From: Motilibacter deserti
GTDB taxonomy: Bacteria; Actinomycetota; Actinomycetes; Motilibacterales; Motilibacteraceae
Reading direction: 5' to 3'
NCBI RefSeq assembly: GCF_011250635.1
Contig: NZ_JAANNP010000001.1
Coordinates: 395,480 to 459,479, forward strand
Length of the DNA: 64,000 nucleotides
Both the position numbers and the translations under genes were made by a program. Below are positions 5,584-59,043 of this stretch, in pieces (positions within the stretch are counted from its first letter, which is position 1; every line of letters begins with the position of its first letter). The notes beneath the pieces are model-generated. The model had not been told where the DNA came from, did no database searches, and saw nothing but the letters and a program-made list of their open reading frames with translations.

Positions 5584-6096
5584 TCAGGGTACGGGCTCTG
5601 CGAGCGCGGCGACGGCCGCTCGGTAGTCGGCGGGGTCGCGCGCCTCTCCCGGCCCGTTGACCACGGACCAGCGCACGAGGCCCTCGGCGTCGAGCAGGAA
5701 CGTGCCGCGGGTCGCGAAGCCGCGCGGCTCGAAGAAGACGCCGTAGGCGCGCGACACGTCGCCGTGCGGCCAGAAGTCCGACAGCAGCGGGTAGGTGATG
5801 CCCTCGCGCTGGGCGAAGACGCGCAGCGCGGGCGACGGGTCGCAAGAGACCCCGACCACCTGGACGCCCTCGAGGCCAGAGGCCTGCTCGTCGGTCTCCG
5901 CGAGCTCGTCGCGCACGGCGCACAGCTCCCCCGTGCACGTCGGGGTGAAGGCGTGCGGGAAGAACACGAGCAGGACGGGCCGGCCCCGCAGCGCCGAGAG
6001 CCGCAGGGGCGTGCCGTGCTGGTCCTCGAGCTCGAAGTCGGGCGCGGGCGTGCCCACGGCCGGCGGGGTCTGCCGGACGGAGCCCTCGGCGCTCAT
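5584..6096 (-). CDS. AhpE-like peroxiredoxin
   Basis: A 170-residue thiol peroxidase of the AhpC/TSA superfamily that reduces peroxides in the cytoplasm. The thioredoxin-fold core is clear: PDFELEDQHG (about 19-28), then the active-site stretch FFPHAFTPTCTGELCAVRD (about 45-63) with the peroxidatic Cys in TPTC; a second Cys five residues later could act as resolving thiol, as in some Bcp/AhpE proteins. An Arg in the C-terminal half (EPRGFATRGTFLLD) fits the conserved active-site arginine. It sits just downstream of DUF3052 on the same strand (10 bases apart). The pairing of peroxiredoxin, DUF3052 and divergent aceE is a recurring actinobacterial arrangement. Confidence 0.9.
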   Translation of the reverse strand: MSAEGSVRQTPPAVGTPAPDFELEDQHGTPLRLSALRGRPVLLVFFPHAFTPTCTGELCAVRDELAETDEQASGLEGVQVVGVSCDPSPALRVFAQREGITYPLLSDFWPHGDVSRAYGVFFEPRGFATRGTFLLDAEGLVRWSVVNGPGEARDPADYRAAVAALAEPVP

Positions 6097-6106
6097 GCGC
6101 AGCCCG

Positions 6107-6538
6107 TCACTTGCGCGCGGCCTTGGGCGCGACGAGCCGGGTGCCCTGCCACTCGCGGCTGGCGCTCACGCTGCTCGTCGACGACAGCCCTGCCGTGGGC
6201 GCGGCGTCGCCGATCTCGCTCGGCTCGACATGGCCCGGCCGGCCCGTCTTGGGCGTCAGCAGCCAGACCATGCCGCCGTCGGCGAGGTCGGTCAGCGCGT
6301 CCACCAGCGCGTCGACGAGGTCACCGTCGCCGTCGCGCCACCAGAGCAGCACCACGTCGACGACGTCGTCCGGCTCGCCCCCGACGAGCTCGTTGCCCGA
6401 CAGGGCGACGATGCTCTCGCGCAGCTCCTCGTCGCAGTCGTCGTCGTAGCCCAGCTCCTGGACCATCTGCCCAGGCTTGATGCCGAGCCGCGCACCCACT
6501 GCGCGCTGGCCTTCCGCGGGCTCCGCGGTCGCGCTCAC
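6107..6538 (-). CDS. DUF3052 family protein
   Basis: A 143-residue conserved actinobacterial protein of unknown function. It is recognised by the N-terminal block LGIKPGQMVQELGYDDDCDEEL, the central VVLLWWRDGDGDLVDALVDAL and the ending GLSSTSSVSASREWQGTRLV, which together are the family's signature. There is no signal peptide or membrane segment, and it is strongly acidic. It is encoded directly upstream of the peroxiredoxin and close to aceE. The fold has been compared to a phosphotransferase-like or DNA-binding-like domain, but no activity is established. Confidence 0.85.
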   Translation of the reverse strand: MSATAEPAEGQRAVGARLGIKPGQMVQELGYDDDCDEELRESIVALSGNELVGGEPDDVVDVVLLWWRDGDGDLVDALVDALTDLADGGMVWLLTPKTGRPGHVEPSEIGDAAPTAGLSSTSSVSASREWQGTRLVAPKAARK

Positions 6539-6674
6539 CCTGCTCCTCCCCGACGCGTCACCAACCCGTCGCCGCCCTCCGTCCAGGCGCCGTTGCCGTA
6601 GTCAACGCCGTCAGGACGAACGCGCGCAAGCGCAACGAGCGGTTACGTCGCCGCGAGTCGGGCATCGGGCAGCC

Positions 6675-6938
6675 ATGCAGGCTGACGCGCAACGGGGTAG
6701 CGGGCGGGTCGTGCGGTGGGACGAACACGCCAGGAAGGGCGCGCTCGTCATCGACTCGCTGCCCGCCGAGGTGGGGTTCGACGGCGACGCGATCGACGCC
6801 GCCGGGCGCCACGGCGTCGAGCCCGGCGAGCTCGTCGAGGTGGTCTACGCCCTGGTCGGCCCACCGGCGGGCGAGGGGGCCGAGCGCGCGGCGGCCGGGC
6901 CGGCGTACCGCGCGACGAGGGTGACGCCCACCGACTAG
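6675..6938 (+). CDS. 87-residue cold-shock-like small protein
   Basis: Small soluble protein starting at ATG 6675. The order of residues in GRVVRWDEHARKGALVIDSLPAEVGFDGDAI and then GVEPGELVEVVYAL follows a cold-shock-domain beta-barrel: G-x-V-x-W/F, a glycine turn, I-x-D, V-x-F, and G-x-x-V-x-F-x-hydrophobic. The aromatic RNP1/RNP2 nucleic-acid-binding residues are mostly missing, so RNA binding is doubtful. Function is unknown. It is divergent from DUF3052 and convergent with yjbQ. Alternative: an unrelated OB-fold protein. Confidence 0.55.
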   Translation: MQADAQRGSGRVVRWDEHARKGALVIDSLPAEVGFDGDAIDAAGRHGVEPGELVEVVYALVGPPAGEGAERAAAGPAYRATRVTPTD

Positions 6939-6972
6939 GGCGGCCACCGACGAGGACGGGCGCCGCTCGGCC

Positions 6973-7386
6973 TCAGCCACCCAGGAAGCTGAGCCGCACC
7001 TCGCGGCGCGGGTTGTCGACGTTCGTGTCGACGAGCACCAGCGACTGCCAGGTGCCGAGCGTCATCGCACCGCGGACGACGGGGACCGTCGCGTGCGGAG
7101 GGACGAGTGCCGGGAGCACGTGGTCGCGCCCGTGGCCGGCAGTCCCGTGCCGGTGCCGCCAGCGGTCGTCGGCCGGCAGCAGGTCGCGCAGCGCGGCGAG
7201 CAGGTCGTCGTCGCTGCCCGCCCCGGTCTCGATCACCGCGATGCCTGCCGTCGCGTGCGGCACCCAGAGCGAGAGCAGCCCGTCGCCGCCGCCGCTGGCC
7301 TCTCGGACGAACGCCGCGCACCGGTCGGTGAGGTCGTACGCGGCCTCCTGGCCGCCGGTCCGGACCTCGATCACCTGCGTCTTCAT
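6973..7386 (-). CDS. YjbQ-family protein (UPF0047)
   Basis: A 137-residue member of the UPF0047/YjbQ family, some of which show weak thiamine-phosphate synthase activity. Conserved features are the WVPHATAGIAVIE block (about 42-54) with its histidine, DLLPADDRWRHRH, the HVLPALVPP stretch with further histidines, and the C-terminal TWQSLVLVDTN...PRREV. The start is chosen at ATG 7386 (MKTQVIEV...) because an AGG lies at suitable distance; an ATG three codons upstream (7395) is also possible. The gene is divergent from aceE. Confidence 0.88.
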   Translation of the reverse strand: MKTQVIEVRTGGQEAAYDLTDRCAAFVREASGGGDGLLSLWVPHATAGIAVIETGAGSDDDLLAALRDLLPADDRWRHRHGTAGHGRDHVLPALVPPHATVPVVRGAMTLGTWQSLVLVDTNVDNPRREVRLSFLGG

Positions 7387-7476
7387 GGCCTTCATCCTGC
7401 CTCTGAGCTGCCGTGTCGCATACTCCTCGCGCCCCCCTGGTGACGAGCACCCCCCGGGGGAGGGACACTGTGCGGT

Positions 7477-10221
7477 GTGGCGAACGATCAGAGTCCGGTG
7501 GGCGTACCCGTCCCCCCGGTGCAGACCGCCCCGGCGTCGTACCAGGACGTCGACTCGGCGGAGACCCAGGAGTGGCTCGAGTCCCTCGACGCTCTCGTCA
7601 AGAACGCCGGCCCGCGCAGGGCGCGCTACATCGTGCAGCAGCTGCTGCAGCACGCCGGCGAGACGGGCGTCCCGGTGCCCGGCGTCGTCCGCACGGACTA
7701 CGTCAACACCATCGGACCGGACCGCGAGCCCGACTTCCCCGGTGACGAGGCGCTCGAGGAGCGCATCGCCAACATCGACCGCTGGAACGCGGCGGTCCTG
7801 GTGTCGCGGGCGAACCGGCCGGGCGTGGGCGTCGGAGGGCACATCGCGTCCTTCGCCTCGTCGGCGACGCTCTACGAGACCGGGTGGAACCACTTCTTCC
7901 AGGGGCCGGACGCCCCGGGCGGTGGCGACCAGATCTTCTGGCAGGGGCACGCGTCCCCCGGCATGTACGCCCGGGCGTTCCTCGAGGGCCGGCTGTCCGA
8001 GGACGACCTCGACAGCTTCCGCCAGGAGCTGACCGGCCCGGGCAAGGGGCTGCCGTCGTACCCGCACCCCCGCCTGATGTCGGACTTCTGGCAGTTCCCC
8101 ACGGTGTCGATGGGCCTCGGCCCGATCGACTCCATCTACCAGGCGCGCTTCAACCGCTACCTGCACAACCGTGGCATCAAGGACACGTCCAACCAGCGGG
8201 TGTGGGCGTTCCTCGGCGACGGCGAGATGGACGAGGTCGAGTCGATCGGCGCCCTCGGCGTCGCCGCCCGCGAGGGCCTGGACAACCTCACCTGGGTCGT
8301 CAACTGCAACCTGCAGCGCCTCGACGGGCCGGTCCGCGGCAACGGCAAGATCATCCAGGAGCTCGAGGGCTACTTCCGCGGCGCCGGCTGGAACGTCGTC
8401 AAGGTCGTGTGGGGCCGCGAGTGGGACGAGCTGTTCGCCCGTGACACCGACGGCGTGCTGGCCGAGGCGATGGCCGACGTCGCCGACGGGCAGTGGCAGA
8501 CCTACAGCGTCGAGAGCGGCGCGTACTTCCGCGAGCACTTCTTCGGGCGCAGCCCGCAGCTGGCCAAGCTCGTCGAGGACCTGACCGACGAGCAGCTCAA
8601 GGCGCTGCGCCGCGGCGGCCACGACCCGCGCAAGGTGTTCGCGGCCTACAAGGCGGCCACCGAGCACAAGGGCGCCCCGTCGGTCGTCATCGTCCAGACC
8701 GTCAAGGGCTGGGGCTTGCGCAGCTTCGAGGCGCGCAACGCCACGCACCAGATGAAGAAGCTGAGCAAGGTCGACGTCAAGGAGTTCCGCGACCGGCTCG
8801 GCCTGCCGATCCCGGACGAGGCGCTCGCCGACCTGCCGCCGTACTACCACCCGGGCGAGGACTCCCCCGAGGTGCGCTACCTGCGTGAGCGCCGGGCCGC
8901 CCTCGGCGGGTCGGTGCCGCAGCGCCGCGACCCGGGCAAGGCGCTCGACCTGCCCGAGGACAAGGTCTACGCCGAGCTCAAGGCCGGGTCCGGCAAGCAG
9001 CCGGTCGCCACCACCATGGCCACGGTCCGGCTCATCAAGGACATGGTCAAGATCAAGGGCTTCGGCGAGCGGATCGTCCCGATCATCCCGGACGAGGCCC
9101 GCACCTTCGGCCTGGACGCGCTCTTCCCCACGGCGAAGATCTACTCCCCGCACGGCCAGCGATACGAGGCCGTCGACCGTGCGCTCCTGCTCTCCTACAA
9201 GGAGTCCACGCAGGGCCAGCTGCTCAACGAGGGCATCACCGAGGCCGGCTCGATGGGCTCGATGATCGCGGCCGGCACGTCGTACTCCACGCACGGCGAG
9301 CCGATGATCCCGATGTACATCTTCTACTCGATGTTCGGGTTCCAGCGGACCGGCGACCAGATCTGGAAGTTCGGCGACCAGCTCGGCCGGGGCTTCCTGC
9401 TCGGCGCCACCGCGGGCCGCACGACGCTCAACGGCGAGGGCCTGCAGCACGAGGACGGGCACTCTCCGCTGATCGCGTCGACCAACCCGGCGTGCGTCTA
9501 CTACGACCCCGCGTGGGCGTTCGAGGTCGGGCACATCGTCAAGGACGGCCTGCGCCGGATGTACGGCCAGGACGCGGAGAACGTCTTCTACTACCTGACG
9601 ATCTACAACGAGCCCTACCTGCAGCCGGCCGAGCCGGAGGGGCTGGACGTCGACGGGCTGCTCAAGGGGCTCTACCGCTACGCCTCGGCCCCGCAGCTGC
9701 ACGACGGGGCGCCCGGCGCGCAGATCCTGGCGAGCGGCGTCGCGATGCAGTGGGCGCTCGACGCGCAGAAGATGCTCGCCGAGGACTGGGGCGTCGCGGC
9801 GGACGTCTGGTCGGCCACGTCGTGGAACGAGCTGCGCCGCGAGGCGCTCGAGTGCGACGGAGCGAACCTGCTCAACCCCGACGGCGAGCAGCGGGTGCCC
9901 TACATCACCCGCACCCTCGCCGGGACGCCCGGCCCGGTCATCGCCGTGTCGGACTACATGCGGACGGTGCAGGACCAGGTCCGGCCGTGGGTCCAGCACG
10001 ACTTCGTCTCGCTGGGCACGGACGGCTTCGGCCTCTCCGACACCCGGGGGGCGCTGCGCCGGCACTTCAAGGTCGACGCGGCGTCCATCGTCGTGGCGAC
10101 GCTGATGCAGCTGGCACGCCAGGGCGGGGTCAAGCCCGAGGCGCCGCGCGAGGCCGTCGAGAAGTACCAGCTCGGCGACATCCGAGCCGCCGGCGCGGGC
10201 AACACGCTCGGGGAGTCGTAG
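7477..10221 (+). CDS. aceE: Pyruvate dehydrogenase E1, homodimeric type
   Basis: A 914-residue thiamine-diphosphate enzyme that decarboxylates pyruvate and acetylates the lipoyl group of E2, feeding acetyl-CoA to the TCA cycle and fatty-acid synthesis. It has full family length. The ThDP/Mg-binding stretch GDGEMDE...[16 protein letters not shown] lies at about 247-290. The amino-terminal block with [17 protein letters not shown] and the central [19 protein letters not shown] are typical of single-chain AceE rather than the alpha2beta2 type. GTG start, 8-9 bases after GGGGGAGGG. Its product supplies the acetyl-CoA used by the fab cluster further along, though the two are not linked in one operon. 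Confidence 0.97.
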
Positions 10222-43270: not shown

Positions 43271-44905
43271 TTAGAGGTGGAACCGGCCCACGACCTGGTC
43301 GAGCTCGGCGGCGGCGCGGGAGACCTCTTCGGCCGTCCCCGCGGTGTGCGCCGCGCCCGTCGTCGTCTGGGCTGCTGCGGCGGCGATGCCGGCGATGTTG
43401 GACGAGATGTCCTGCGAGCTCGTCGACACCTCGGTGACGTTGCGGACCATCTCCGCCGTGGTCGCCGACTGCTCCTCGACCGCAGCGGCGATCGTCGACT
43501 GCAGCTCGTCGATCCGACCGATGACGTCGGTGATCTGCGCGATCGCCAACGAGGCCGCCTCGGCGTCGGCCTGGGTGGCGCCGACGCGCGCCGTGATGTC
43601 ACCGGTGGCGCGGGCGGTCTCCTGCGCCAGGTCCTTCACCTCGCCCGCGACCACGGCGAAGCCCTTGCCGGCCTCGCCCGCGCGGGCGGCCTCGATGGTC
43701 GCGTTGAGGGCCAGCAGGTTCGTCTGCTCGGCGATCGAGGTGATGAGCTTGACCACGTCGCCGATCTCGCGGGACGACGCGCTCAGCCTGTCCAGCGTCT
43801 CCTGAGCGGCGCGGGCGGCAGCGACCGCGCTCGCCGCGGTGGCGGTGGCCTCGGAGGTCGACGTCGCGATCTCGCGGATCGCGGCGGTCATCTGCTCGCC
43901 GGCGGCGGCAACCGTGCCGATGTTGCCGGAGATCTGCTGGCTCGTGGCCGACACCGACTGCGCCTGGGCCGAGGACTCCTCCGCCCCCGAGGACAGCTGC
44001 GTGGCGACCCCGGTCAGCTCCTCAGACGAGGACGCGAGCGTGGTGGCATTGGCGGCGATGTCGCGGATGGTCTCGCTGAGCCGGTCCATCGTCGCGTCCA
44101 CCGCACCGGCCAGCTTGCCGACCTCGTCCCGGCTGTCGTAGGCGACGCGCTGGTCGAGGCGGCCCTCGGCGAGGCCCTCCACGACGACCAGCGTCCGGCC
44201 AAGGGGGCGGGCGACGCCGCGGGCGATGGCGTACGCGATGCCGACGCCGAGCACGACCGCGACCGCTCCGACGACGAGCAGCAGCACGACGGACCCGTGG
44301 TAGGTGTCGTTCCCCTGGTCGGCCAGGTCGACCGCGGCCTGAGCCTCGGCCGTACGGAACTCCGTCAGCATCCCGAAAAGCTCGTTCGCCGGCGGAGTCA
44401 CCTCGGCCTTGCGCAGGTCGATGAAGCCCTGGATGTCACCGGAGTCGGCGAGCGGGATGAGCTTGTCGGCGGCGGCCTCGTACTCGGCCAGCTTGGCCTC
44501 GAAGGCATCCCGGGCCTGGGCCGTCGCAGCGGGCGCGCTGGCGAGGTACGCGTCCCAGGCCTGGGTCAGCGCCTGCTGGTCCTCCTCGAGCGCGCTCTTC
44601 ACCTCGGCCCGCCCGGCCGCGTCCGGGCTGAGGCCCAGGTTGGCGTAGTCCATCCGGACCTTAAGGAGAGCCGAGCGGGTGTCCCCCACCGTCTGGACGG
44701 ACGCCACGCCGGAGGTGGACATCGTCCGCAGGCTGTCCTGCAGCCCGCCCAGGCGGTTGATGCCCACAGCGACGGCAACGATCAACAGCAGACAGACGAC
44801 CCCGAAGCCGGCAGCGAGCTTCGCGGCGACACGGAGGTTGCGCACACGGTTCAGCATGTCCAGACCATCGGACGAGTGCGCCGGTCTCTTGAGGTTATCC
44901 CCCAT
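43271..44905 (-). CDS. Methyl-accepting chemotaxis protein
   Basis: A 544-residue chemoreceptor. A first TM (about 27-49) precedes a periplasm-side four-helix-bundle sensor (about 50-205), then TM2 (about 210-232), a HAMP domain ([20 protein letters not shown]...) and a cytoplasmic signalling hairpin whose tip reads [37 protein letters not shown], nearly invariant in MCPs. It signals to CheA/CheW, so the host should have a chemotaxis system and flagella or another motility machine, not visible in this window. The start is uncertain: ATG 44905 lacks a ribosome binding site and ATG 44857 ([15 protein letters not shown]) is a plausible alternative. Confidence 0.93.
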
Positions 44906-45046: not shown

Positions 45047-45092
45047 GGTGGGGCGGGTGGGGCTCGAACCCACGACCCAGGGATTATGAGTC
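45047..45092. repeat. attL: left 46-bp copy of tRNA-Met 3' end
   Basis: Identical to 58635-58680. It covers the T-arm, variable loop and anticodon loop of the tRNA (minus-strand sense) but stops before the 5' half, so it is not a functional tRNA. Sequence diverges immediately after GAGTC (TGTTCG here, CCCTG at the right copy). Confidence 0.95.
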
Positions 45093-46253: not shown

Positions 46254-47198
46254 TCATCGGCGCTCCCGGGAGTGCCGGCTGGCGTGAGCGGCGAAGTACT
46301 CGCCCATCCGCGCGGTATGGCCGAGCACGGCTTTGCCTGCGAGACGCGCAATTGCGTTGTTCAAGTCTTCTGTTGCAACAGTCAACTTCTGATTCCGAAC
46401 CACCCTGCCCGTCTCGTCGACCATCACAAAGCCTCGCTCAAACAGTTCGTCGCAGCCGAGAGTGCATGCCGGCATCATATTGGCGGAATCCAAACGTTCC
46501 GCGGTCGTAGAATCAGCTCGCCGCTTGATGTGCGCCAATCTCAGAAGCGATATGGGCAACTCCCGATGACATAGGCTGCACGCTAGTGACGCGTGCCGCC
46601 CGAGGATTGCGCGCCGGAACTGCTTCTGCTCCTTCCGCACTAGGGCAAGTGCCAGGCCGTCTAGCCCCTCAAGCCCGGATAGTAGTCGGTCGGGAACTAG
46701 CGGCTCGTCGTCGTCTGGCACTGGATCGTCGTCCTCGTCCAAAGGTGGCGGGCCGACAACGGGCATACCCCTGTGATGCACCGCCCCATGCACGGCTTCG
46801 ATTCGCGCCTCTCCCCGTACTGCCAGCGGCGCGCCTGGCAGCTCAATCGGGGAATCCAGTGCCACTCGGTAGGGGTAGACGTCGTTCTTCCATAACGGCG
46901 TCGTGTCCTCGCGTAGAGGTCGAACGACCCGCGCAACTGTGACCGAGTTCAGTGACGCATGGCGCCAAGCCGGATGATGCAGAGGAGTGCGTGGCCATCC
47001 CGAAGGCGGATCAGTGGTCTTGACCCCTTGAGCGAAGACAAGGTAGGTCGGCCTGGACAACGCGCGCAACTGATCCATTGCTGCGTCGACCTCCGCACCC
47101 AGAGAGTCCTGCTTCCAGCCCCATGTGAGGTTGTTCAACCCGGTGTTGAAGTTTTTCTTGGCAGCCTTACCCGCGTAGACGTACAAGTACCGCGACAT
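46254..47198 (-). CDS. HNH endonuclease with an EVE/PUA-like N-terminal region
   Basis: A 314-residue protein. The C-terminal HNH module (about 205-262) has zinc knuckle CSLC (207-210), LAHIKRR with His223, SANMMPACTLGCD with Asn240, and a nearby DELFERGF. Residues about 1-140 (YLYVYAGKAAKKNFNTG, TWGWKQ, WRHASLNSVTVARVVRPL, YPYRVALDSPIEL) resemble the base-reading EVE/PUA fold seen in modification-dependent HNH endonucleases; this part is tentative. An acidic linker (DEDDDPVPDDDE) lies at about 154-165. If right, it would cut DNA with modified bases, as carried by some phages. The start is 9 bases after the MazG gene stop, so both are probably one operon. Confidence 0.7.
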   Translation of the reverse strand: MSRYLYVYAGKAAKKNFNTGLNNLTWGWKQDSLGAEVDAAMDQLRALSRPTYLVFAQGVKTTDPPSGWPRTPLHHPAWRHASLNSVTVARVVRPLREDTTPLWKNDVYPYRVALDSPIELPGAPLAVRGEARIEAVHGAVHHRGMPVVGPPPLDEDDDPVPDDDEPLVPDRLLSGLEGLDGLALALVRKEQKQFRRAILGRHASLACSLCHRELPISLLRLAHIKRRADSTTAERLDSANMMPACTLGCDELFERGFVMVDETGRVVRNQKLTVATEDLNNAIARLAGKAVLGHTARMGEYFAAHASRHSRERR

Positions 47199-47207
47199 CT
47201 CTTCCCC

Positions 47208-47543
47208 CTAGCGATCCCGACTCCACTTGCCGCGCCACTCCGCCGCGGGGAACCGGGCCTCGTTCCGTTCGATCTTGTCTGTCACAGCAGTCTGCAGGTC
47301 TACACCGACCACGTCCGCGAAACGCAGAAGATAGATGAAGACGTCAGCTAGCTCATCCTGAAGCCTGCTACTCGAGACGGAGGCGTCGTCAACGACCCAC
47401 TGATACAGCTCTGCTAGCTCGCCAACCTCGCCTATCAGCGCAAGCAGCAGGTTCTTCGGGGTGTGGACCCGGGTCCACTCACGCGCCTCCGCGAAGTCCC
47501 TCAGCCGAGCCTGCGTTGCAGCGGTCCAGTCCTGCTCCGACAT
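47208..47543 (-). CDS. MazG-like nucleotide pyrophosphohydrolase
   Basis: A 111-residue all-helical NTP pyrophosphatase of the MazG/dCTPase (RS21-C6-like) type. The metal-binding pattern ExxE...ExxD is visible: EVGELAELYQW with Glu39 and Glu42, and QDELADVFIYLLRFAD with Glu64 and Asp67; the distance fits the dCTP pyrophosphatase-like subgroup. It hydrolyses (d)NTPs to monophosphates. In a mobile defence island it may remove modified phage nucleotides or lower the dNTP pool. ATG 47543 has AGGA at 9 bases; an ATG at 47552 is also in frame. Confidence 0.85.
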   Translation of the reverse strand: MSEQDWTAATQARLRDFAEAREWTRVHTPKNLLLALIGEVGELAELYQWVVDDASVSSSRLQDELADVFIYLLRFADVVGVDLQTAVTDKIERNEARFPAAEWRGKWSRDR

Positions 47544-48119
47544 GGAAGACATCCTGCACGAGGCGGTTGCCGCGACACAGGCCAACCGTAGATGCGGTGG
47601 TGCCGCGTGACCCCGGATCGTTGAGTGTGTTCCCAACAGGGGGATGACCAGGCCTGAGGACGTGTTGACGCAGGTGAACGGCTCTTCCGTTCCGCCGGAG
47701 ACCGATTACACCTCCCCACGCACCCCTAGTTTGCGGACTGCCTGCGACTGCTCGAGCCTTAGCGCACCGTGCCTACGGCGCTACCCGCGCTGATGTCTGT
47801 CGGTGTCCCCGAGGCCGCCTACGGCTGCTCGTGGAGGGCAACTTCACGCTCGGACCCGGTTCGACCATCAGTCCCTGCAAGGGCCAGTTCTGTGACGAGA
47901 ACTGGCTCCTCCGGAGAGTGGACGAAGCGACGGCCTCCGAGGAGTCTCCCTGGTCACGACGGCAGCCGGCCGCATCTTGACCCGGGGATGCTGGCACACG
48001 ACAGCTTCATTTGGGCACGTCTCGCGTGTAGGTCTAGCTGACGAACTGCTACCGCCGAAGTAGGTCCGGAGAAACTCCGCACGTTCGCGCGGCTGGACGA
48101 ACAAGCAAGCCATCGACGG
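47544..48119. other. Gene-free stretch between ATPase and MazG genes
   Basis: 576 bp in which I find no reading frame with family-like sequence or a credible ribosome binding site. It must hold the 3' end signals of the nuclease-ATPase operon and the promoter for the MazG-HNH-membrane run. Base composition is like the rest of the element. Confidence 0.5.
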
Positions 48120-50018
48120 CTACTTCAGGTACTCACGTGGCATACGGATGACATGAGCTGCCTTCATAGCTCCGCGCACTGGTTTAGCCTGAGTGCTCAC
48201 TACCTGCGTACGGGTCTCCAGCGCAGCGTCAAATAGGAGGCGCAGCGCCACCTCAACTCGGGCGTCAGGTAGGCCATGCTGGTAGGGGTTGTCCAGAAGC
48301 AGAAGACCCGGGGGGCAAGCACGGTCACCCAAGTCAAGCTGAAGGTAGAGGATGGCGTAGCTGTACGCAAAGAAGAAGAGGACGCGCGCCTCGGCTCCCA
48401 ACTGCTGATCCCAAGGGCGCGACCCGACGAAGAAGGTCATGTCGTCGCCGTTCAGCACCACATAGTCATGACCCCACCCATTCCCGGAGAAGTTGCGTAG
48501 GAACTCATTCATCCTCCCGGCGAACACGGTACATCGATCCGCGATCTCCCGGCGGGGATCGGGCAGGTCTCTGGCCTGTTGCAATAGGTCATCGAGTACG
48601 GCCTCGGCATCCTCGACGGCGGCAACTGCTACCTCAACTTCCTTGTAGATCGCGCGCACGGCGGGAAGTGAAGCCAACTGGACTTCTACCCGGGCCTGCC
48701 GCGCAGCGAGTTCCTCTAGAGCAGCCACGAAAGGAGCGAGCACTGAGGCTCTCTCATTGTTTAGCCGACCCGCTAGTTCCGCCCGTTTCTGCCCCAGGTG
48801 CGACAAGCGGCTGCTTTCATTCTCAAGGTCGACTAGCGCATCCGAGATGGCGTCATTCAAGTCAAGGATTTCGGAGGCCAGGGCACGCTTCTCGATCTGA
48901 GCCCGTCTCTTGCGTTGGTCAGGAGATACAGGCTGACTACAGACGTAGCATTCGCCAGACTCTTGACGAGCCCTGCGACTGACCGTCTGGGCACAGGCGG
49001 GGCAGACGCGGACAGGTGTTTCGTCGAAGACGTCGACGGCGGAGATCAACCGATCAAGTCGGTCTTGATCCAAGACAGCCTCAGCTAGGGAGTGCCTATG
49101 TTCTTCCAATACAGATTCCAAGCCGGCCACGGCCTGTGCTGCCCGCGTCTCAGCCTCGGCTACAGCCTTGTACTGCTCTCCGAGATTACTGTCGTGCCCG
49201 GCGGCAGTGGCCGCCCCAGCTTCGGCCCCGCGCTCAGTTATGTCTCGACGTGCTCCCTCGATCTCCGCCAGAGCTGCTAGCAAGTGTTGTCGCGCCTGGT
49301 CCAAGTCCTCCGCTCCTTCTGCTGGCGGAAGACCAAGTTGGCGCAGAACGGCGCCCGCCGCCGCGTCAGCAGTTTCACGAGCCTGGGCCGCCACGATTCG
49401 TCGGGCGATCAACTGTCGGTCGGCCTCGACGATGGCATACTCAACGTTGTTGTACCTTTCTGGCGCAAGCCCTAAGAAGTAAGTTGTTACAGCCCGACGC
49501 AGGTACTCCTCCTCCTTGTTGGCGAACGACGTCCAAGACTCCTCATTCCGATGGACGTGTCTTAATAGAGCTCTGAAAGTCAGCGGAATCAGCTTGGATG
49601 CCATCTGAACGTTCTGCGCCATCGGTATGGTCAGAACCGGCCAGTCGAGTCTACTGAGCGCCCAAGTGGAGAACTCTTCGGGCGAGAGCAGGCTGCCGTC
49701 TACCTCAACTCTCCCGATAGACCCATGTTCGAGACGTCGGACGATCTCATGAATGTTTCCACGGATTCGGACCGTCAGCCTAAACTCGGCGTACTTTTCG
49801 GCGATCGACGAGCCGACCCGGTGCTGCGGCCCTTTAGTTGAACCAAGCACGTAATGGATGATCTTGAGCGTCGTAGTCTTCGACGAGTTTGGTGGGCCGT
49901 ACAGGATGGTGTGCGAGCTCGTGAAAGAGAACTCTTCGATTTCGCCGTTATTAGTGACAAGCACGAGCCGCAGCACGCGCAGTCCCTCCGGAACATCGAT
50001 CGATGCGCGTGCGCTCAC
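48120..50018 (-). CDS. SMC-like ABC ATPase with zinc hook (LmuB-like / ABC-3C ATPase)
   Basis: A 632-residue ATPase. N-terminal Walker A region GPPNSSKTTT (41-50), then two coiled-coil arms (about 195-330 and 365-500) flanking a zinc hook with CPAC (339-342) and CYVC (357-360), as in Rad50/SMC proteins. The C-terminal ATPase half has Walker B LLLLDNPYQ (572-580). The Gly before the P-loop Lys is Ser, and Asn stands where most ABC ATPases have the catalytic Glu; LDSP/LDNP-type Walker B variants are characteristic of conflict-system ABC ATPases. GTG start overlaps the stop of the middle gene (GTGA). It probably senses aberrant DNA ends or replication intermediates and releases the nuclease. Confidence 0.85.
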   Translation of the reverse strand: MSARASIDVPEGLRVLRLVLVTNNGEIEEFSFTSSHTILYGPPNSSKTTTLKIIHYVLGSTKGPQHRVGSSIAEKYAEFRLTVRIRGNIHEIVRRLEHGSIGRVEVDGSLLSPEEFSTWALSRLDWPVLTIPMAQNVQMASKLIPLTFRALLRHVHRNEESWTSFANKEEEYLRRAVTTYFLGLAPERYNNVEYAIVEADRQLIARRIVAAQARETADAAAGAVLRQLGLPPAEGAEDLDQARQHLLAALAEIEGARRDITERGAEAGAATAAGHDSNLGEQYKAVAEAETRAAQAVAGLESVLEEHRHSLAEAVLDQDRLDRLISAVDVFDETPVRVCPACAQTVSRRARQESGECYVCSQPVSPDQRKRRAQIEKRALASEILDLNDAISDALVDLENESSRLSHLGQKRAELAGRLNNERASVLAPFVAALEELAARQARVEVQLASLPAVRAIYKEVEVAVAAVEDAEAVLDDLLQQARDLPDPRREIADRCTVFAGRMNEFLRNFSGNGWGHDYVVLNGDDMTFFVGSRPWDQQLGAEARVLFFFAYSYAILYLQLDLGDRACPPGLLLLDNPYQHGLPDARVEVALRLLFDAALETRTQVVSTQAKPVRGAMKAAHVIRMPREYLK

Positions 50019-50602
50019 AGCGCGATCCTCGACCTCATAGCAGCGTCGCCTACTTCTCTCGGAAACAGCTCGTAGATGAGCTCCTTGAGTTCCGTCCCAG
50101 ACATCTTGGCTAGGGTTCCTGACATCACCGCACACCTCGATACGATGGGGCCGAACTCAGGACGGGACACGAGCCGGTCCGCAACGTCAACTCCTGCTCG
50201 CGTCAGCACGTACCTCTCAACCTTGCGGCCCTTGCGCACAGACAGCAGCTTTCGGGTCTCCAGGAACGACACGAAGTTCCGATACCTCGGGTCCCAGGGG
50301 CCGTACCGATAGCGAATCATGGGAGCCTCGATCTCCCCGTCGCTCACAGCGGAATGTGATCCCGCCTCACCTTCGAGCCCTTGCAACTGAGCTAGTGCCC
50401 GCTGCAAGAACTCGGGGTAGCGGACGAAGAAGTCGAGCTTGGCGAGCTTGGTCCTACCCGTCAGGGTCGGCACGTCGGGTTCCTCACTACACAAGCGGAA
50501 CAGGATCAATAGCCTCGCCGCGTGGAACTCAGGGCTCTCGTCAGGGTCCAAAGGGCGGTGCAGGGGTGGAACAAGCGCCGCCCCAACCTCAAGAATCGGC
50601 AT
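50015..50602 (-). CDS. Middle component of Lamassu/ABC-3C-like system
   Basis: A 195-residue winged-helix-type protein. The stretch TGRTKLAKLDFFVRYPEFLQRAL (about 48-70), then PMIRYRYGPWDPRYRNFVSFLETRKLLSV and YVLTRAGVDVADRLV, is characteristic of the middle (MC/LmuC-like) proteins that sit between the effector and the ATPase. It likely bridges the nuclease to the SMC dimer. Start overlaps the end of the nuclease gene by 14 bases; its stop overlaps the ATPase start by 4, so all three are translated as one operon. Confidence 0.8.
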   Translation of the reverse strand: MPILEVGAALVPPLHRPLDPDESPEFHAARLLILFRLCSEEPDVPTLTGRTKLAKLDFFVRYPEFLQRALAQLQGLEGEAGSHSAVSDGEIEAPMIRYRYGPWDPRYRNFVSFLETRKLLSVRKGRKVERYVLTRAGVDVADRLVSRPEFGPIVSRCAVMSGTLAKMSGTELKELIYELFPREVGDAAMRSRIAL

Positions 50603-51665
50603 ATCGGTTCACACACCGAGCGGTCACGTCGTGCAAGGCACCCTGCAGCAGCCGATTGCCAGCGGCGGGGAACTGCGCCGATCCGGCCGCTGTCACGGCC
50701 TTCAGTGTCTCGAGATAGGCGGTCTGCGGGTCTTGGATTCTGCCCGCCCGTCTAGCTGCCATCACTAAAGCACAAGCCGCGTACACCTCGTCCGCGATTT
50801 CGTCGAACTCGCGGCGCCGCTCGCCAACAGCATCTCGACGCGCGCTCCTGAAGCTGCGCAACTGTGCTTGTGCTGCTCGAATCTCCGCGTCAGGCAGTTT
50901 GACCGGCCGCAACTTCTCCTCGAGAGTTGGTTGTGGCACCGCGGCGATAGCGCGACCATCACCGCACACGCGATTGGCTACTTTGACGAGCAGAGCGAGG
51001 AAGCTTTCCCGGTTGTGATGCTCCACCTTGCTGGCCCTGGCGCTGCGGGCAACGGCTTCAAGTAGTTGCGCTATGACCTCTTCAACCTCAGCCAGCAAGA
51101 CGCCCGTGCTTGTAACTTGCTCGACTTGAGGCGCAATCCTCTGAGCAGCTTGGCGCTCAAGGTCCTCAATACTGCGGCTTGAGACAATGACTCGAAAGCC
51201 ACGGAGGCAGCCGGCAACGCTGAAGCCATCAGGAAGCCGAAGACCTTGTAGCCGCTCACAGACGTCTTTGATCGCGCGTTGAGGTACAGGCGCTTCGGCG
51301 AGCTTCTCGGGGGAGAAGGCGTACAAGTCTCGCAGCGGAGTCTCGTTCAGTACTAGGTCAAACCTGTCCCCGATAGTGAGACGCTTGCCCGAGAATAAAC
51401 GCCCCAAAATGCTCGTTGCCGGGTTGCCGCCCACTTCTGGACGGCACACGCTCGCAATGCTGTGTCGCGAGCCAGGGCCTTCAAGTGTCTTGACCTGCCT
51501 ATAGATTGAGCCGCGCTCGTCCGAGCAGTGGATGTCCTCGTCAGATTCCCAGCCAACTGAATGATAGGTACCGGCACAGAGCTCCAGACAATCCATGAGC
51601 GTTACCACGTCTTGGTACGCGAACCCGCGCCGACTGCGACGACCTCCCCCGCCCGGTCCGTGCAC
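50589..51665 (-). CDS. Cap4/DUF4297-type dsDNA nuclease effector (LmuA-like)
   Basis: A 358-residue protein. The N-terminus RGFAYQDVVTLMDCLEL (13-29) with VGWESDEDIHCSDERGSIYRQVKT (37-60) is the DUF4297/Cap4 nuclease: acidic Glu40 and Asp42/44 and the QVK motif (57-59) form a PD-(D/E)XK-like active site. The C-terminal 150 residues are helical (LRPVKLPDAEIRAAQAQLRSFRSARRDAVGERR) and probably tether it to the partner proteins. As the toxic effector it would degrade DNA once the ATPase is triggered by phage. GTG start at 51665; it is the first gene of the operon. Confidence 0.82.
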   Translation of the reverse strand: MHGPGGGGRRSRRGFAYQDVVTLMDCLELCAGTYHSVGWESDEDIHCSDERGSIYRQVKTLEGPGSRHSIASVCRPEVGGNPATSILGRLFSGKRLTIGDRFDLVLNETPLRDLYAFSPEKLAEAPVPQRAIKDVCERLQGLRLPDGFSVAGCLRGFRVIVSSRSIEDLERQAAQRIAPQVEQVTSTGVLLAEVEEVIAQLLEAVARSARASKVEHHNRESFLALLVKVANRVCGDGRAIAAVPQPTLEEKLRPVKLPDAEIRAAQAQLRSFRSARRDAVGERRREFDEIADEVYAACALVMAARRAGRIQDPQTAYLETLKAVTAAGSAQFPAAGNRLLQGALHDVTARCVNRYADS

Positions 51666-52133: not shown

Positions 52134-54626
52134 GTGGCAGGTCTTGACTTCGGCCGACTAGGCGGGCTTTCCGCCTCCGACACGGAAGTGCACCCCCGGG
52201 AAATCTTCGCTGCGCTGCCGGAGAAGATTTCGAAGTTTGAGTACCTGCGCGACGTGCAGCGTGAAGTCTTCAACGCCTGGTACGAGCGGCGCAAGCAACG
52301 CGACGTCGTAATCAAGATGAACACGGGGAACGGCAAGACAGTGGTGGGGCTGCTGCTACTGAAGAGCGCCCTAAACGAAGGTGCCGGGCCCGCTGCGTAC
52401 TTCACCCCGGACAACTACTTGGCGGATCAGGTCGAACAGACCGCGCGTGAGCTTGGTCTTAGGACCTCGCGCGACCCTAGAGACCCGATGGTAGCCGCCG
52501 GCACCGCGATTCTTGTGACGAATCTGAAGACCTTGTTCAATGGCAGGAGCAAGTTCGGCGTCGCCTCTGAGGGGCGCAAGATCAAGCTCGGTACCGCTTT
52601 GATCGACGATGCGCACGCATGCTTGTCCGTCACCGAAGAACAGTTCCAGTTGCGCATCCCTTCGAACCACGACGCGTACAAGGCACTGCTATCGCTCTTC
52701 GAGGCCCCGCTACAAGACCAGTCCCCGGCCCAGTTCCTTAGTCTGAAGGACGGGGACCGTACGGCTGCGATGCTCGTACCAGCATGGAGTTGGTTCGACG
52801 AGCAGAAGCGCGTGATAGCTACCTTGCATCCTCACCGGCAAGATGCCGAGTTCGAGTGGACGTGGCCCCTGCTGCTCAATGCGCTCCCCTTCTCTCGGTG
52901 CGTATTCACGCCTGAGGCAGTCGAGATCAAGCCCTACTTCCCGCCGGTGCAGGAGGTGCCGAGCTTCGATCAAGCAGCGAGACGCATTTACCTGACCGCG
53001 ACACTGGCCGATGACAGCGTGCTTGTCACCCACTTCGCCGCCTCGGCGACCTCTGTACGTGAGCCAATCACGCCGAGCGCGGCAGACGATATCGGTGACC
53101 GAATGATCATCGTTCCACAGAGCGTTCAGCCGAGCTGGACCGACGACCAGATCAAGGGCTACCTCGCCGAGCTCGCGCAGCGCCGCAACGTCATCGTCAT
53201 CGTCCCTTCTAATTCGCGAGCCAAGTACTGGGGTGACGTGGCGGCTGCGACACTCACCGCCAGCAATCTGCAGGCTGGGGTGACACGACTGAAGGCTGGG
53301 CACGTTGGACTCGTCGTGCTCGTCGGCAAGTACGACGGCGTGGACCTGCCGGACGACGCCTGTCGAGTCCTGGTGATCGATGGGCTGCCGGAGTACTACA
53401 GCGGGGTGGAGCGCGTCGAGGCATCCGCGTTGAGCGACACTATGGCGATGACTGGGAGGCACCTCCAGCGGATTGAACAGGGCATGGGCCGAGGTGTCCG
53501 CTCACGAGACGACTACTGCGTAGTTCTGCTACTAGGGGCCAAACTGGTGTGGCGTCTACACGACGCCCCTGCGGCAGAGTTATTTGGACCCGCTACGAGG
53601 GCGCAGATGGCGCTGTCAAAGGAGGTTGCAAGTCAGCTCTCCTCGGGAGACTTGGACGACCTCAAGGCTGCGGTCGAGCAGTGCCTCCAGAGGGTTCGAG
53701 GCTGGACCACTGCTAGCCGCAACGCCTTGGTGGGCGTCAAGTATGGACCCGGAGCGGTACAGCCGGCCGCTGAACATTCCCGTCGAGCCTTCGAGCTTGC
53801 TCTGCAGTCACGGTACGGCGAGGCGCAGGGGGCTCAGCAGATGGCCGTGAACGCCCTCGCTGAACCGAGAGAACGCGGATGGCTTAAGCAGATGCTCTCC
53901 GCCTATCTACATCCGGAAGATGCTGTGCGCGCCCAAAAGAACCAGATGAGTGCACTGGACGACAACAGGGCGCTGCTTAAGCCTGAGCAAGGTATTGCCT
54001 ACGTTAAGCTGAAGGGAGCCGCGGGACAGCAGGCTGTGGCTGCGAGTGAATTCCTGTCCGCCACCTACGAAAGCGGCCAGGAGTTGCTGATCGGCGTCAA
54101 CGCGATGTTGGCCGATCTCGACTTCGATGACGACCCGCTACGAGTAGACAGCTTCGAAGAGGCCGTCGCGAATCTGGGTCGGCACCTCGGCTTCGTGACC
54201 CAACGGCCCGAGAAAGACTTCAAGCGCGGACCGGACGGACTGTGGGCACTCGGTGGCCTCAACTATCTCGTCATTGAGTGCAAGAGCGGTGCGGTCACAG
54301 ACTTCATCCGGAAGAAGGACCTTGACCAACTCTCCGGCGCGGTGAGTTGGTTCCATACCGAGTACGAGGACCCCGCGGCCTGCACACCTGTGATGTTTCA
54401 CCGGGTGAGCAAGCTTCACCAAGAAGCTTCAGCTGCACCCGGCACCCGCGTGGTCACCGAGGCGCAGCTGACGAAGTTGCGAACCGCGGTGCTCCAGGTG
54501 GCCACCGCCCTTGCGGTCGACGACGCTTTCCGGAACCCTGACTTGGTCGGTGAACAACTCCGCTTGCGAAAGCTGCAGGGTCGAGGAGTTGTCGAGGCGT
54601 ACGCGTCGAGCACACTCATGCCCTAG
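52134..54626 (+). CDS. SF2 (DinG/XPD-like) helicase with C-terminal PD-(D/E)XK nuclease motif
   Basis: An 830-residue protein. Helicase motifs: I MNTGNGKTVVG (62-72), II LIDDAHACLS (156-165, DDAH box), III LTATL (287-291), and VI EQGMGRGVRSRDD (448-460), giving a DinG/XPD-like order but without the Fe-S cysteine cluster. Residues about 670-740 (SFEEAVANLGRHLGFVTQ, GPDGLW, YLVIECKSGA) fit a restriction-type nuclease core: Asp701 and Glu715-x-Lys717. A linker of some 200 helical residues joins the two. Motor plus nuclease in one chain on a mobile element suggests a stand-alone anti-phage or restriction-like protein. GTG start. Confidence 0.82.
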   Translation: MAGLDFGRLGGLSASDTEVHPREIFAALPEKISKFEYLRDVQREVFNAWYERRKQRDVVIKMNTGNGKTVVGLLLLKSALNEGAGPAAYFTPDNYLADQVEQTARELGLRTSRDPRDPMVAAGTAILVTNLKTLFNGRSKFGVASEGRKIKLGTALIDDAHACLSVTEEQFQLRIPSNHDAYKALLSLFEAPLQDQSPAQFLSLKDGDRTAAMLVPAWSWFDEQKRVIATLHPHRQDAEFEWTWPLLLNALPFSRCVFTPEAVEIKPYFPPVQEVPSFDQAARRIYLTATLADDSVLVTHFAASATSVREPITPSAADDIGDRMIIVPQSVQPSWTDDQIKGYLAELAQRRNVIVIVPSNSRAKYWGDVAAATLTASNLQAGVTRLKAGHVGLVVLVGKYDGVDLPDDACRVLVIDGLPEYYSGVERVEASALSDTMAMTGRHLQRIEQGMGRGVRSRDDYCVVLLLGAKLVWRLHDAPAAELFGPATRAQMALSKEVASQLSSGDLDDLKAAVEQCLQRVRGWTTASRNALVGVKYGPGAVQPAAEHSRRAFELALQSRYGEAQGAQQMAVNALAEPRERGWLKQMLSAYLHPEDAVRAQKNQMSALDDNRALLKPEQGIAYVKLKGAAGQQAVAASEFLSATYESGQELLIGVNAMLADLDFDDDPLRVDSFEEAVANLGRHLGFVTQRPEKDFKRGPDGLWALGGLNYLVIECKSGAVTDFIRKKDLDQLSGAVSWFHTEYEDPAACTPVMFHRVSKLHQEASAAPGTRVVTEAQLTKLRTAVLQVATALAVDDAFRNPDLVGEQLRLRKLQGRGVVEAYASSTLMP

Positions 54627-56822: not shown

Positions 56823-57461
56823 TTGGAAGAGCGAGTGATCTTGTCTCGTGCCGATGTCAAGCGCGGGCTCTATGAGCACGTCGTTGCAGTCGGAGGGTGG
56901 TGTGTGGTGATCACTCTCGGCATGCAGGCGTCTCGTCTCGTAGTCGCCGAGTTGCGCGTAATCCCGTGGTTGGAGGGCCTGCCGGAGGACACGGAGCCGG
57001 CTTGGCCAGGGACCGCTGACGCCGTCGAGCAACACGTGCCCGAAGGAGGCCTCACGACCTCCGCGCTCGGCGCGCTTCACCTGGGTCGCCTCGTCGAGCA
57101 GGCGAGAAGGGAGGCGCGCGTCGCGATCCCTGTCTTGGAAGCCGAAGGCGAACAAGCGGCAGGCATATGGGCAGGCAAGCTCCGTGAGGAGCGGCGCGCG
57201 GTCGGACGGCGTGGCTACGACGACGGGTACTACGCGGAGGTCGCACGCGACTTCGCTCGCGAGCGTCTCCGAGGCGGTCGGGGACCGATCAAGCGCCTGG
57301 CGGCTCAGTGGTTCGTCTCCGAGGAGACAGCACGCAACCGCGTCCAAGAAGCGCGACGGCGTGGCCTTCTGACTTCCGCACGCCCGGGACGAACCGAGGG
57401 CGAGCTGACCGACCGAGCACAAGAGCTGCTGATTCAGCGAGAGGAGCAACACGGTGGCTAG
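56823..57461 (+). CDS. Element-borne protein with C-terminal DNA-binding-like region
   Basis: A 212-residue protein. The start is uncertain: TTG 56823 or GTG 56835. Residues about 95-140 are charged and helical, and the C-terminus GPIKRLAAQWFVSEETARNRVQEARRRGLLT is a helix-turn-helix that resembles repressor/WhiA-like recognition helices. Proteins of this arrangement lie directly upstream of, and overlap, integrase genes in actinobacterial elements. Its stop overlaps the integrase start by 8 bases. It may be a regulator of integration; function not known. Confidence 0.6.
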   Translation: MEERVILSRADVKRGLYEHVVAVGGWCVVITLGMQASRLVVAELRVIPWLEGLPEDTEPAWPGTADAVEQHVPEGGLTTSALGALHLGRLVEQARREARVAIPVLEAEGEQAAGIWAGKLREERRAVGRRGYDDGYYAEVARDFARERLRGGRGPIKRLAAQWFVSEETARNRVQEARRRGLLTSARPGRTEGELTDRAQELLIQREEQHGG

Positions 57462-58632
57462 CGCGACAAAGCGCGGACAGGGCAGATGGCTCGGGCGGTA
57501 CCGCGGCCCGGATGGCAGAGAACGCACGAAGACGTTCGCTACGAAGCGCGACGCTGAGCGATGGGCGCAGGAGCAGGAGCGGAAGGTCCGGACGATGGAC
57601 TGGACCGATCCGGTGCTCGCGAAGACGACGATCGCAGAGTGGGCCGATCACTGGGTCACGACGCTGCACGTCGCGCCAAGCACGCTGGACTCCTACCGCT
57701 CGATTCTTAGGGGGTTGGTGATTCCCCGGTGGGGAGCCCTACGGCTGGATCAGGTGACGTTCACGGCGGTGCAGTCATGGGTGGCGGGCATGACCGGTGC
57801 GAAGGGGCAGCTCCTCAGCGCCTCACGCCGACGACATGCGGCGCACCTTCTGACCGCGATGCTGGACGCTGCGGTCGCTGACGGGCGTCTTCCGAAGAAC
57901 CCGGCACGCCCTCAGGGAGGCGCCGGGAGGAAGGGCATGCTGCCCAAGCTGCCTGCAACGGGCGGGCATCGCTACCTGCGGCACGAGGAGCTGCAGAAGC
58001 TCGCGGCTCACGCGGCGTCGTACGAGACGCTGGTCCTCGTTCTCGGCTACTGCGGGGTGCGCTGGGGAGAAGCTGCCGCACTCAGGGTCCGGTCCGTTGA
58101 CCTGCTGCGCGGGCGGCTTCTGGTCACGGAGTCTGTGTCGGAGGTGGAGGGCGGGCTCTCCTACGGGCCGACGAAGACGCACCAGGCCCGAACCGTCCCG
58201 GTGCCCTCGTTCCTGCGCAAGCAGCTCGACGCCCTGATGGAGGGCAAGTCGCCGGACGACCTCCTGTTCACGTCGCCTGAGGGCGCGTCGCTGCGCAACG
58301 GCAACTTCCGCAAGCGTGTGTTCCTCCCCGCGATTAAGGCTTCAGGCCTGCCCGCTCTCCGTATCCACGACCTGCGGCACACCGCCGCGTCGCTTGCGGT
58401 CGCCTCCGGGGCGAACGTCAAGGCCGTGCAGAAGATGCTGGGGCACGCCAGCGCCACGATGACGCTGGACACGTACGCGGACCTGTTTGATGACGAGCTG
58501 GACGCCATCGCCGAGCGGATGGACGAACGCGCTGCGCAGGCGCGTGCGGACTCCCTGCGGACTGCGGACGGCTCAACCTTGGTTTCGCTGCCCGCGTCAG
58601 AGGTGCAGCAGGTCGCTGACTTGCGCAGATGA
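57454..58632 (+). CDS. int: Site-specific tyrosine recombinase (integrase)
   Basis: A 392-residue phage-type integrase. N-terminal arm-binding domain (about 1-50, GRWLGRYRGPDGRERTKTF), SAM-like core-binding domain (about 60-150), catalytic domain with Arg203 (CGVRWGEA), Lys241 (TKTHQAR), His305 and Arg308 (HDLRHTAAS), His331 (LGHAS) and nucleophile Tyr341 (TLDTYADL). All catalytic residues are present, so it should be active. It ends 2 bases before attR in the tRNA gene. GTG start at 57454. Confidence 0.96.
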   Translation: MASATKRGQGRWLGRYRGPDGRERTKTFATKRDAERWAQEQERKVRTMDWTDPVLAKTTIAEWADHWVTTLHVAPSTLDSYRSILRGLVIPRWGALRLDQVTFTAVQSWVAGMTGAKGQLLSASRRRHAAHLLTAMLDAAVADGRLPKNPARPQGGAGRKGMLPKLPATGGHRYLRHEELQKLAAHAASYETLVLVLGYCGVRWGEAAALRVRSVDLLRGRLLVTESVSEVEGGLSYGPTKTHQARTVPVPSFLRKQLDALMEGKSPDDLLFTSPEGASLRNGNFRKRVFLPAIKASGLPALRIHDLRHTAASLAVASGANVKAVQKMLGHASATMTLDTYADLFDDELDAIAERMDERAAQARADSLRTADGSTLVSLPASEVQQVADLRR

Positions 58633-58634
58633 TC

Positions 58635-58680
58635 GGTGGGGCGGGTGGGGCTCGAACCCACGACCCAGGGATTATGAGTC
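58635..58680. repeat. attR: right 46-bp repeat within the tRNA-Met gene
   Basis: Identical to 45047-45092. It covers the 3' half of the intact tRNA gene from the anticodon stem to 2 bases past the discriminator, so integration leaves the tRNA whole. Confidence 0.95.
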
Positions 58681-58710
58681 CCCTGCTCTGACCGGCTGAG
58701 CTACCGCCCC
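58637..58710 (-). tRNA. tRNA-Met (anticodon CAT)
   Basis: Minus-strand cloverleaf with acceptor GGGGCGG / CCGCCCC, D-arm GCTC...GAGC, anticodon stem GGGGA/TCCCT around loop CTCATAA (anticodon CAT), and T-arm GTGGG-TTCGAGC-CCCAC; discriminator A. Elongator Met is most likely; Ile with a lysidine-modified CAU is the alternative. It is the integration site of the adjacent element. Confidence 0.88.
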
Positions 58711-58756
58711 CGACGGCCGAGGCCGCAGCCCGACTCTGCCATCCCGGCCCGGCCCG

Positions 58757-58828
58757 GCGCAGCCCGACCCGCCCAGCACGGCACAGCCCGACCCGCCCAG
58801 CACGGCGCAGCCCGACCCGCCCAGCACG
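58757..58828. repeat. 24-bp tandem repeat, three copies
   Basis: Three consecutive 24-base units with core CAGCCCGACCCGCCCAGCAC (58757-58780, 58781-58804, 58805-58828); the middle unit differs by one base (GCAC for GCGC). Next to the tRNA-Met 5' end, in a gene-free stretch that runs to 59303. Confidence 0.9.
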
Positions 58829-58975
58829 GAGTCAGCCAGCGTGCGTGGCTGCTGTCACGGCCACGACTGCGGGCTGACTCCGCTCAGGCCCTCGACCGGC
58901 ACCCAACGCCCCGCCACAGTGATCGTTTGGCGCCCATGGCTGCTGGGACAGCCGATCCGGCCGAACGTCTCCGCC

Positions 58976-59043
58976 GACCCCGACCCGCGACTCGACCCGC
59001 CCCGACCCGACCCGACCCGACCCGACCCGACCCGACCCGACGG
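58976..59043. repeat. (CCCGA)n microsatellite
   Basis: Eight perfect copies of CCCGA (59001-59040) flanked by degenerate copies. The repeat is a 5-mer and thus would shift frame if translated; no gene is recognised here. The rest of the gene-free stretch 58711-59303 also holds an imperfect 27-28 bp direct repeat (59060-59087 and 59193-59219). Confidence 0.9.

What the first reader, a model, noticed from the sequence alone, without database searches (positions are those of the whole stretch)
52134..54626. Candidate single-gene defence system: DinG/XPD-like helicase fused to a PD-(D/E)XK nuclease
An 830-residue chain combines all main SF2 motifs (MNTGNGKT, DDAH, TAT, QGMGRGVRS) with a C-terminal GPD...IECKS nuclease core. 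It lacks the iron-sulphur cysteines of XPD/DinG. It is divergent from the Lamassu-like operon in a mobile island. I cannot match it to a named defence system, so it may be undescribed or belong to a little-studied family.
Basis: partly seen in the sequence, partly recalled or inferred. Interest (0 to 1): 0.65.

Follow-up and report, generated by a model that had tools for sequence, protein, structure and literature searches.

The report
Hna single-gene phage-defence nuclease
The gene is a distant but clear member of Hna, a known single-protein bacterial anti-phage system (a helicase-like ATPase joined to a DNA-cutting domain), carried on a 13.6-kb mobile island beside other defence genes; it is a real defence gene but not an undescribed system.

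Summary
One 830-residue frame (52134-54626, +) holds complete SF2 motifs and a C-terminal PD-(D/E)XK core, without an XPD/DinG-type iron-sulphur cysteine set. The claim that it matches no named system is wrong: the protein is Hna (helicase-nuclease abortive infection), described in Sinorhizobium meliloti in 2023, with cryo-EM structures released in 2025. Four tests agree. Its only PDB sequence match is Hna (E=4.6e-124). Window protein and S. meliloti Hna hit the same PADLOC model, PDC-S28, at 989 and 961 bits. The window model (pLDDT 90) superposes on Hna monomer 9yhn over 803 residues (Z 46, rmsd 2.2 A; next family Z about 17). The nuclease residues P712/D713/E727/K729 of Hna are P700/D701/E715/K717 here. 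The gene sits in a 13.6-kb tRNA-Met island absent from a congeneric genome, beside a Lamassu-type operon; no partner gene is conserved in 80 relatives. One point is unsettled: the loop of the ATP-locked inhibited dimer in S. meliloti Hna (T30/D31/P34) is not conserved in this branch (S33/K34/Y37), so the switch or its phage trigger may differ. Activity of this copy is untested.

The parts
52134..54626 (+). hna homologue: 830-aa SF2 ATPase/helicase + PD-(D/E)XK nuclease (GTG start)
52317..52340 (+). Walker A / motif I MNTGNGKT (residues 62-69)
52605..52616 (+). Walker B / motif II DDAH (residues 158-161)
52995..53003 (+). motif III TAT (residues 288-290)
53478..53504 (+). motif VI QGMGRGVRS (residues 449-457)
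52227..52247 (+). loop (residues 32-38) at the position of the Hna dimer interface T30/D31/P34; sequence not conserved here (S33/K34/Y37)
54135..54533 (+). C-terminal PD-(D/E)XK nuclease domain (about residues 668-800; helix, strands, helix, strand core)
54228..54236 (+). nuclease GPD motif (P700, D701 = Hna P712, D713)
54276..54284 (+). nuclease ExK motif (E715, K717 = Hna E727, K729)
45047..45092 (.). att-like 46-bp repeat, far end of the island
58635..58680 (.). att-like 46-bp repeat = 3' part of tRNA-Met
57454..58632 (+). tyrosine integrase of the island (context)
48120..51665 (-). neighbouring Lamassu-type operon: Cap4-nuclease LmuA-like 50589-51665, LmuC 50015-50602, LmuB SMC-like 48120-50135 (separate system, context)

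Best explanation
The gene encodes a member of the Hna family, a one-protein anti-phage abortive-infection system. Two N-terminal RecA-like SF2 domains bind ATP and single-stranded DNA, and a C-terminal PD-(D/E)XK domain degrades DNA. By homology to S. meliloti Hna, the resting protein is held inactive in an ATP-bound dimeric state; [quoted passage not shown] Shown here: family membership, predicted fold, catalytic residues, mobile and patchy occurrence, absence of a conserved partner. Taken from S. meliloti Hna: exonuclease polarity, ATP inhibition, abortive infection, SSB triggering. Inferred only: that this copy is active, and that this branch uses the same inhibitory dimer and trigger, since the dimer-loop residues differ.
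For: Only PDB sequence match is Hna 10uj/9yhn/9ykj, E=4.6e-124 over residues 8-765. AF2 model pLDDT 90.2; best PDB fold match 9yhn Hna monomer, Z 46.0, rmsd 2.2 A, 803 residues spanning 19-830; next family CasDinG/XPD, Z about 17 over residues 18-540. S. meliloti Hna and the window protein hit the same PADLOC model PDLC04986 at 961 and 989 bits. Hna P712/D713/E727/K729 and ATP-site R36/Q39 map to P700/D701/E715/K717 and R39/Q42. The PDB chain is 100% identical (residues 7-778) to pSymA of S. meliloti 1021. Published: Hna is an Mg2+/Mn2+-dependent 3'-5' ssDNA exonuclease, an ATP-inhibited dimer, activated by phage SSB, dead as K729A (PMC13381803); abortive infection, hna alone sufficient to restore phage resistance (PMC12445080). 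Among 60 genomes only the window's own carries it; 239 plasmid records carry homologues; no conserved neighbour within 3 kb in 80 loci.
Against: Only 30-33% identity to S. meliloti Hna and on a different branch, so the mechanism is carried over by homology. The dimer-interface residues T30/D31/P34 are not conserved in this branch: D31 is mostly K or R, P34 mostly Y, R or F, and the loop is shortened in a Streptomyces-rich clade. No phage assay could be run.
Confidence: 0.95

Rival explanations
1. It is an Hna-family protein whose branch has a different regulatory switch: not the T30/D31/P34 dimer loop, and perhaps a different phage trigger, although catalysis is the same.
For: Catalytic residues invariant but dimer-loop residues divergent, with opposite charge at the D31 position across most of the branch; branch separate from S. 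meliloti Hna.
Against: Overall fold superposes at 2.2 A over 803 residues; a dimer interface can be kept with changed residues; ATP-site Q42 is invariant and R39 common; alignment of a short variable loop at 30% identity is uncertain.
Confidence: 0.25
2. A housekeeping XPD/DinG-type DNA-repair helicase.
For: SF2 fold similarity to XPD/DinG, Z about 17; Helicase_C_2 match.
Against: Among 60 genomes only the window's own has it; on an integrative island lacking in a congener; no Fe-S cysteine set; C-terminal nuclease domain matched only by Hna.
Confidence: 0.01
3. A subunit of the neighbouring Lamassu-type operon, working as its helicase partner.
For: Divergent neighbour of a Lamassu-type operon with a Cap4/HamA-like nuclease.
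Against: None of the island genes recurs next to any of 80 homologues; S. meliloti Hna acts alone; full-length Hna match.
Confidence: 0.03

Closest known systems
Hna of Sinorhizobium meliloti (SMa2245; PDB 9yhn, 9ykj, 10uj; PADLOC PDC-S28)
   Same: Full-length architecture, fold (Z 46), catalytic P/D/E/K, ATP-site residues, no Fe-S cluster, no conserved partner gene, mobile.
   Different: About 30-33% identity; different branch; dimer-loop residues T30/D31/P34 replaced; on a tRNA-Met island of a high-GC genome instead of pSymA.
DinG / XPD / CRISPR-associated DinG helicases
   Same: SF2 RecA-like domains and their arrangement (residues about 18-540).
   Different: No Fe-S cluster, C-terminal PD-(D/E)XK nuclease added, not housekeeping.
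Hachiman HamAB
   Same: Helicase plus nuclease defence logic; also reported to be stimulated by phage SSB (PMC13381803).
   Different: Two proteins. Here the neighbouring Cap4-like protein, not this gene, shows weak HamA similarity.
DdmD of the DdmDE anti-plasmid system
   Same: From memory only: SF2 helicase with a nuclease domain.
   Different: From memory: needs the Argonaute DdmE. Not tested against a DdmD profile here.

Membership tests
Hna (PDC-S28) | Full-length match to the family model shared with S. meliloti Hna | tested here: met
   PDLC04986: window 989 bits (residues 4-825), S. meliloti Hna 961 bits
Hna (PDC-S28) | Overall fold HEL1-HEL2-NUC as in PDB 9yhn | tested here: met
   Z 46, rmsd 2.2 A, 803 aligned, model pLDDT 90
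Hna (PDC-S28) | PD-(D/E)XK catalytic residues P712/D713/E727/K729 | tested here: met
   P700/D701/E715/K717
Hna (PDC-S28) | ATP-site R36/Q39 and SF2 motifs | tested here: met
   R39/Q42, K68, D158/D159, R453/R456
Hna (PDC-S28) | No iron-sulphur cluster | tested here: met
   Only C410 and C462 invariant
Hna (PDC-S28) | Single gene (no conserved partner) | tested here: met
   No gene family beside more than 5 of 80 homologues within 3 kb
Hna (PDC-S28) | Dimer-loop residues T30/D31/P34 (shown for S. meliloti Hna; not established as defining the family) | tested here: inconclusive
   S33/K34/Y37; residues not conserved in this branch, but dimerisation itself untested
Hna (PDC-S28) | Abortive infection, SSB triggering, 3'-5' ssDNA exonuclease | not testable with these tools
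   Needs assays; known for S. meliloti Hna (PMC13381803)
DinG/XPD housekeeping helicase | Core gene of relatives | tested here: not met
   Among 60 genomes only the window's own
DinG/XPD housekeeping helicase | Four-cysteine Fe-S domain | tested here: not met
   Only two invariant cysteines
DdmD | Match to DdmD and presence of a DdmE Argonaute partner | not tested
   Considered from memory; superseded by the full-length Hna match

The most novel reading that the evidence does not exclude
The branch of Hna to which this gene belongs (actinobacterial, proteobacterial and other members) has lost or rebuilt the inhibitory dimer loop and is switched on by a different phage signal, so the S. meliloti mechanism describes only part of the family.
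Probability: 0.25. Interest if true: 0.45.

Novelty: new member of a known kind. Interest (0 to 1): 0.2.

Why it matters
It adds a divergent member, on an integrative island of a high-GC bacterium, to a recently solved defence family, and shows that the residues of the published autoinhibitory dimer loop are not shared by its branch, which makes the generality of the Hna switch directly testable. The discovery of a new system is not supported.

Tried and rejected
Undescribed system: rejected by PADLOC, PDB sequence and fold matches. Housekeeping helicase: rejected by patchy occurrence. Part of the Lamassu-type operon: rejected, no co-occurrence in 80 loci. The single-sequence AlphaFold run was useless (pLDDT 34) and was replaced by the 55-sequence run. 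Phage carriage: one record of 50,697 in the phage collection, a 501-kb Salmonella entry, and 4 IMG/VR contigs; not pursued. A PADLOC scan of genes around close relatives gave 164 matched models (138 genes) against 7 in 83 control genes, but these are overlapping models hit by few genes, and the control differs in taxa and number, so it is only weak support for a defence setting. The two PADLOC PDC-S28 models do not separate the Hna branches. The window's organism was not identified.

Full report
Observation. The reported frame is real: 52134-54626, plus strand, GTG start, 830 aa, no internal stops. Pfam places DEAD, Helicase_C_2 and ResIII above threshold. One genome scan returned 80 relatives at about 40-61% identity; apart from a few incomplete loci they keep the whole length, with D701 and K717 invariant and E715 in 99%. 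Only C410 and C462 are invariant cysteines, so the XPD/DinG iron-sulphur set is indeed missing.

Identity. PADLOC names the protein PDC-S28 at 989 bits over residues 4-825; in PADLOC that label is only a candidate. The only sequence match in the PDB is the chain of 10uj/9ykj/9yhn at E=4.6e-124; 9yhn and 9ykj are titled Hna monomer and Hna dimer. That chain (residues 7-778) is 100% identical to a gene on pSymA of S. meliloti 1021, and it hits the same PADLOC model at 961 bits. An AlphaFold2 model from 55 aligned members reached pLDDT 90.2. It superposes on the Hna monomer 9yhn with Z 46.0, rmsd 2.2 A over 803 residues (19-830), nuclease domain included; the next structures, CRISPR DinG and XPD, have Z about 17 and cover only residues 18-540. 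The protein is therefore a member of Hna.

What is known of Hna. In S. meliloti, re-introducing hna alone restores phage resistance to strains cured of pSymA, and it works by abortive infection (PMC12445080, citing Sather et al. 2023, doi 10.1016/j.chom.2023.01.010). It is an Mg/Mn-dependent 3'-5' ssDNA exonuclease, showed no unwinding activity, is inhibited by ATP through a homodimer made by a HEL1 loop (T30/D31/P34), is dead as K729A, and is released by a phage SSB; escape phages carry SSB changes (PMC13381803).

Residue mapping. Window P700/D701/E715/K717 are Hna P712/D713/E727/K729, and R39/Q42 are R36/Q39. The dimer loop is different: T30/D31/P34 become S33/K34/Y37. In the five S. meliloti-like members sampled, G33 and P34 are constant and D31 is D, E or K; in the 59 sampled rows of the window's branch, D31 is mostly K or R, P34 mostly Y, R or F, and 13 rows lack the loop centre. 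The branch split is well supported in a quick tree, but members were chosen by similarity to the window, so the tree does not describe the whole family. The alignment of a short variable loop at 30% identity is itself uncertain. This is the one real open point.

Context. The gene lies in a 13.6-kb island between 46-bp perfect repeats (45047-45092, 58635-58680), the second being the 3' part of tRNA-Met, with a tyrosine integrase at 57454-58632 and GC near 62% inside against about 74% outside. In a genome of the same genus, the DNA matching the window up to 43205 and from 59238 lies 240 bases apart with an intact tRNA-Met between, in the opposite orientation; the chemotaxis gene at 43271-44905 lies on another contig there. 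Among 60 genomes only the window's own has the gene, while 239 plasmid records carry homologues. The island also holds a Lamassu-type operon (LmuB, LmuC and a Cap4-nuclease LmuA-like protein), a MazG-like protein and a weak HNH-like match. No neighbour family recurs next to more than 5 of 80 homologues, and none of the island's other genes recurs, which fits a one-gene system.

Verdict. Hna, a divergent new member of a known kind, confidence 0.95 for membership. That this copy is active, and that it uses the same dimer switch and SSB trigger, is inferred and untested.

Noticed in passing
48120-51665 (-): Lamassu-type operon with LmuB, LmuC and a Cap4-domain LmuA-like nuclease that also matches HamA weakly.
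   Followed up: partly
47208-47636 (-): MazG-like nucleotide pyrophosphohydrolase inside the island.
   Followed up: partly
46254-47198 (-): 314-aa protein with a weak PADLOC HNH match (E=1.7e-4) and an HNH-like stretch with paired cysteines.
   Followed up: partly
43271-44905 and 58635-58710: In a same-genus genome the tRNA-Met is inverted relative to the window and the methyl-accepting chemotaxis gene beside the island is on another contig, so the region next to the island has also been rearranged.
   Followed up: partly
58726-59037: Short G+C-rich direct repeats (copies spaced about 10-24 bases) just outside the tRNA-Met end of the island.
   Followed up: no
L110 (pTi of Agrobacterium C58), 5998-8508, and some 45 Agrobacterium plasmid records: Ti-type plasmids carry a distant Hna homologue near repABC.
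   Followed up: no
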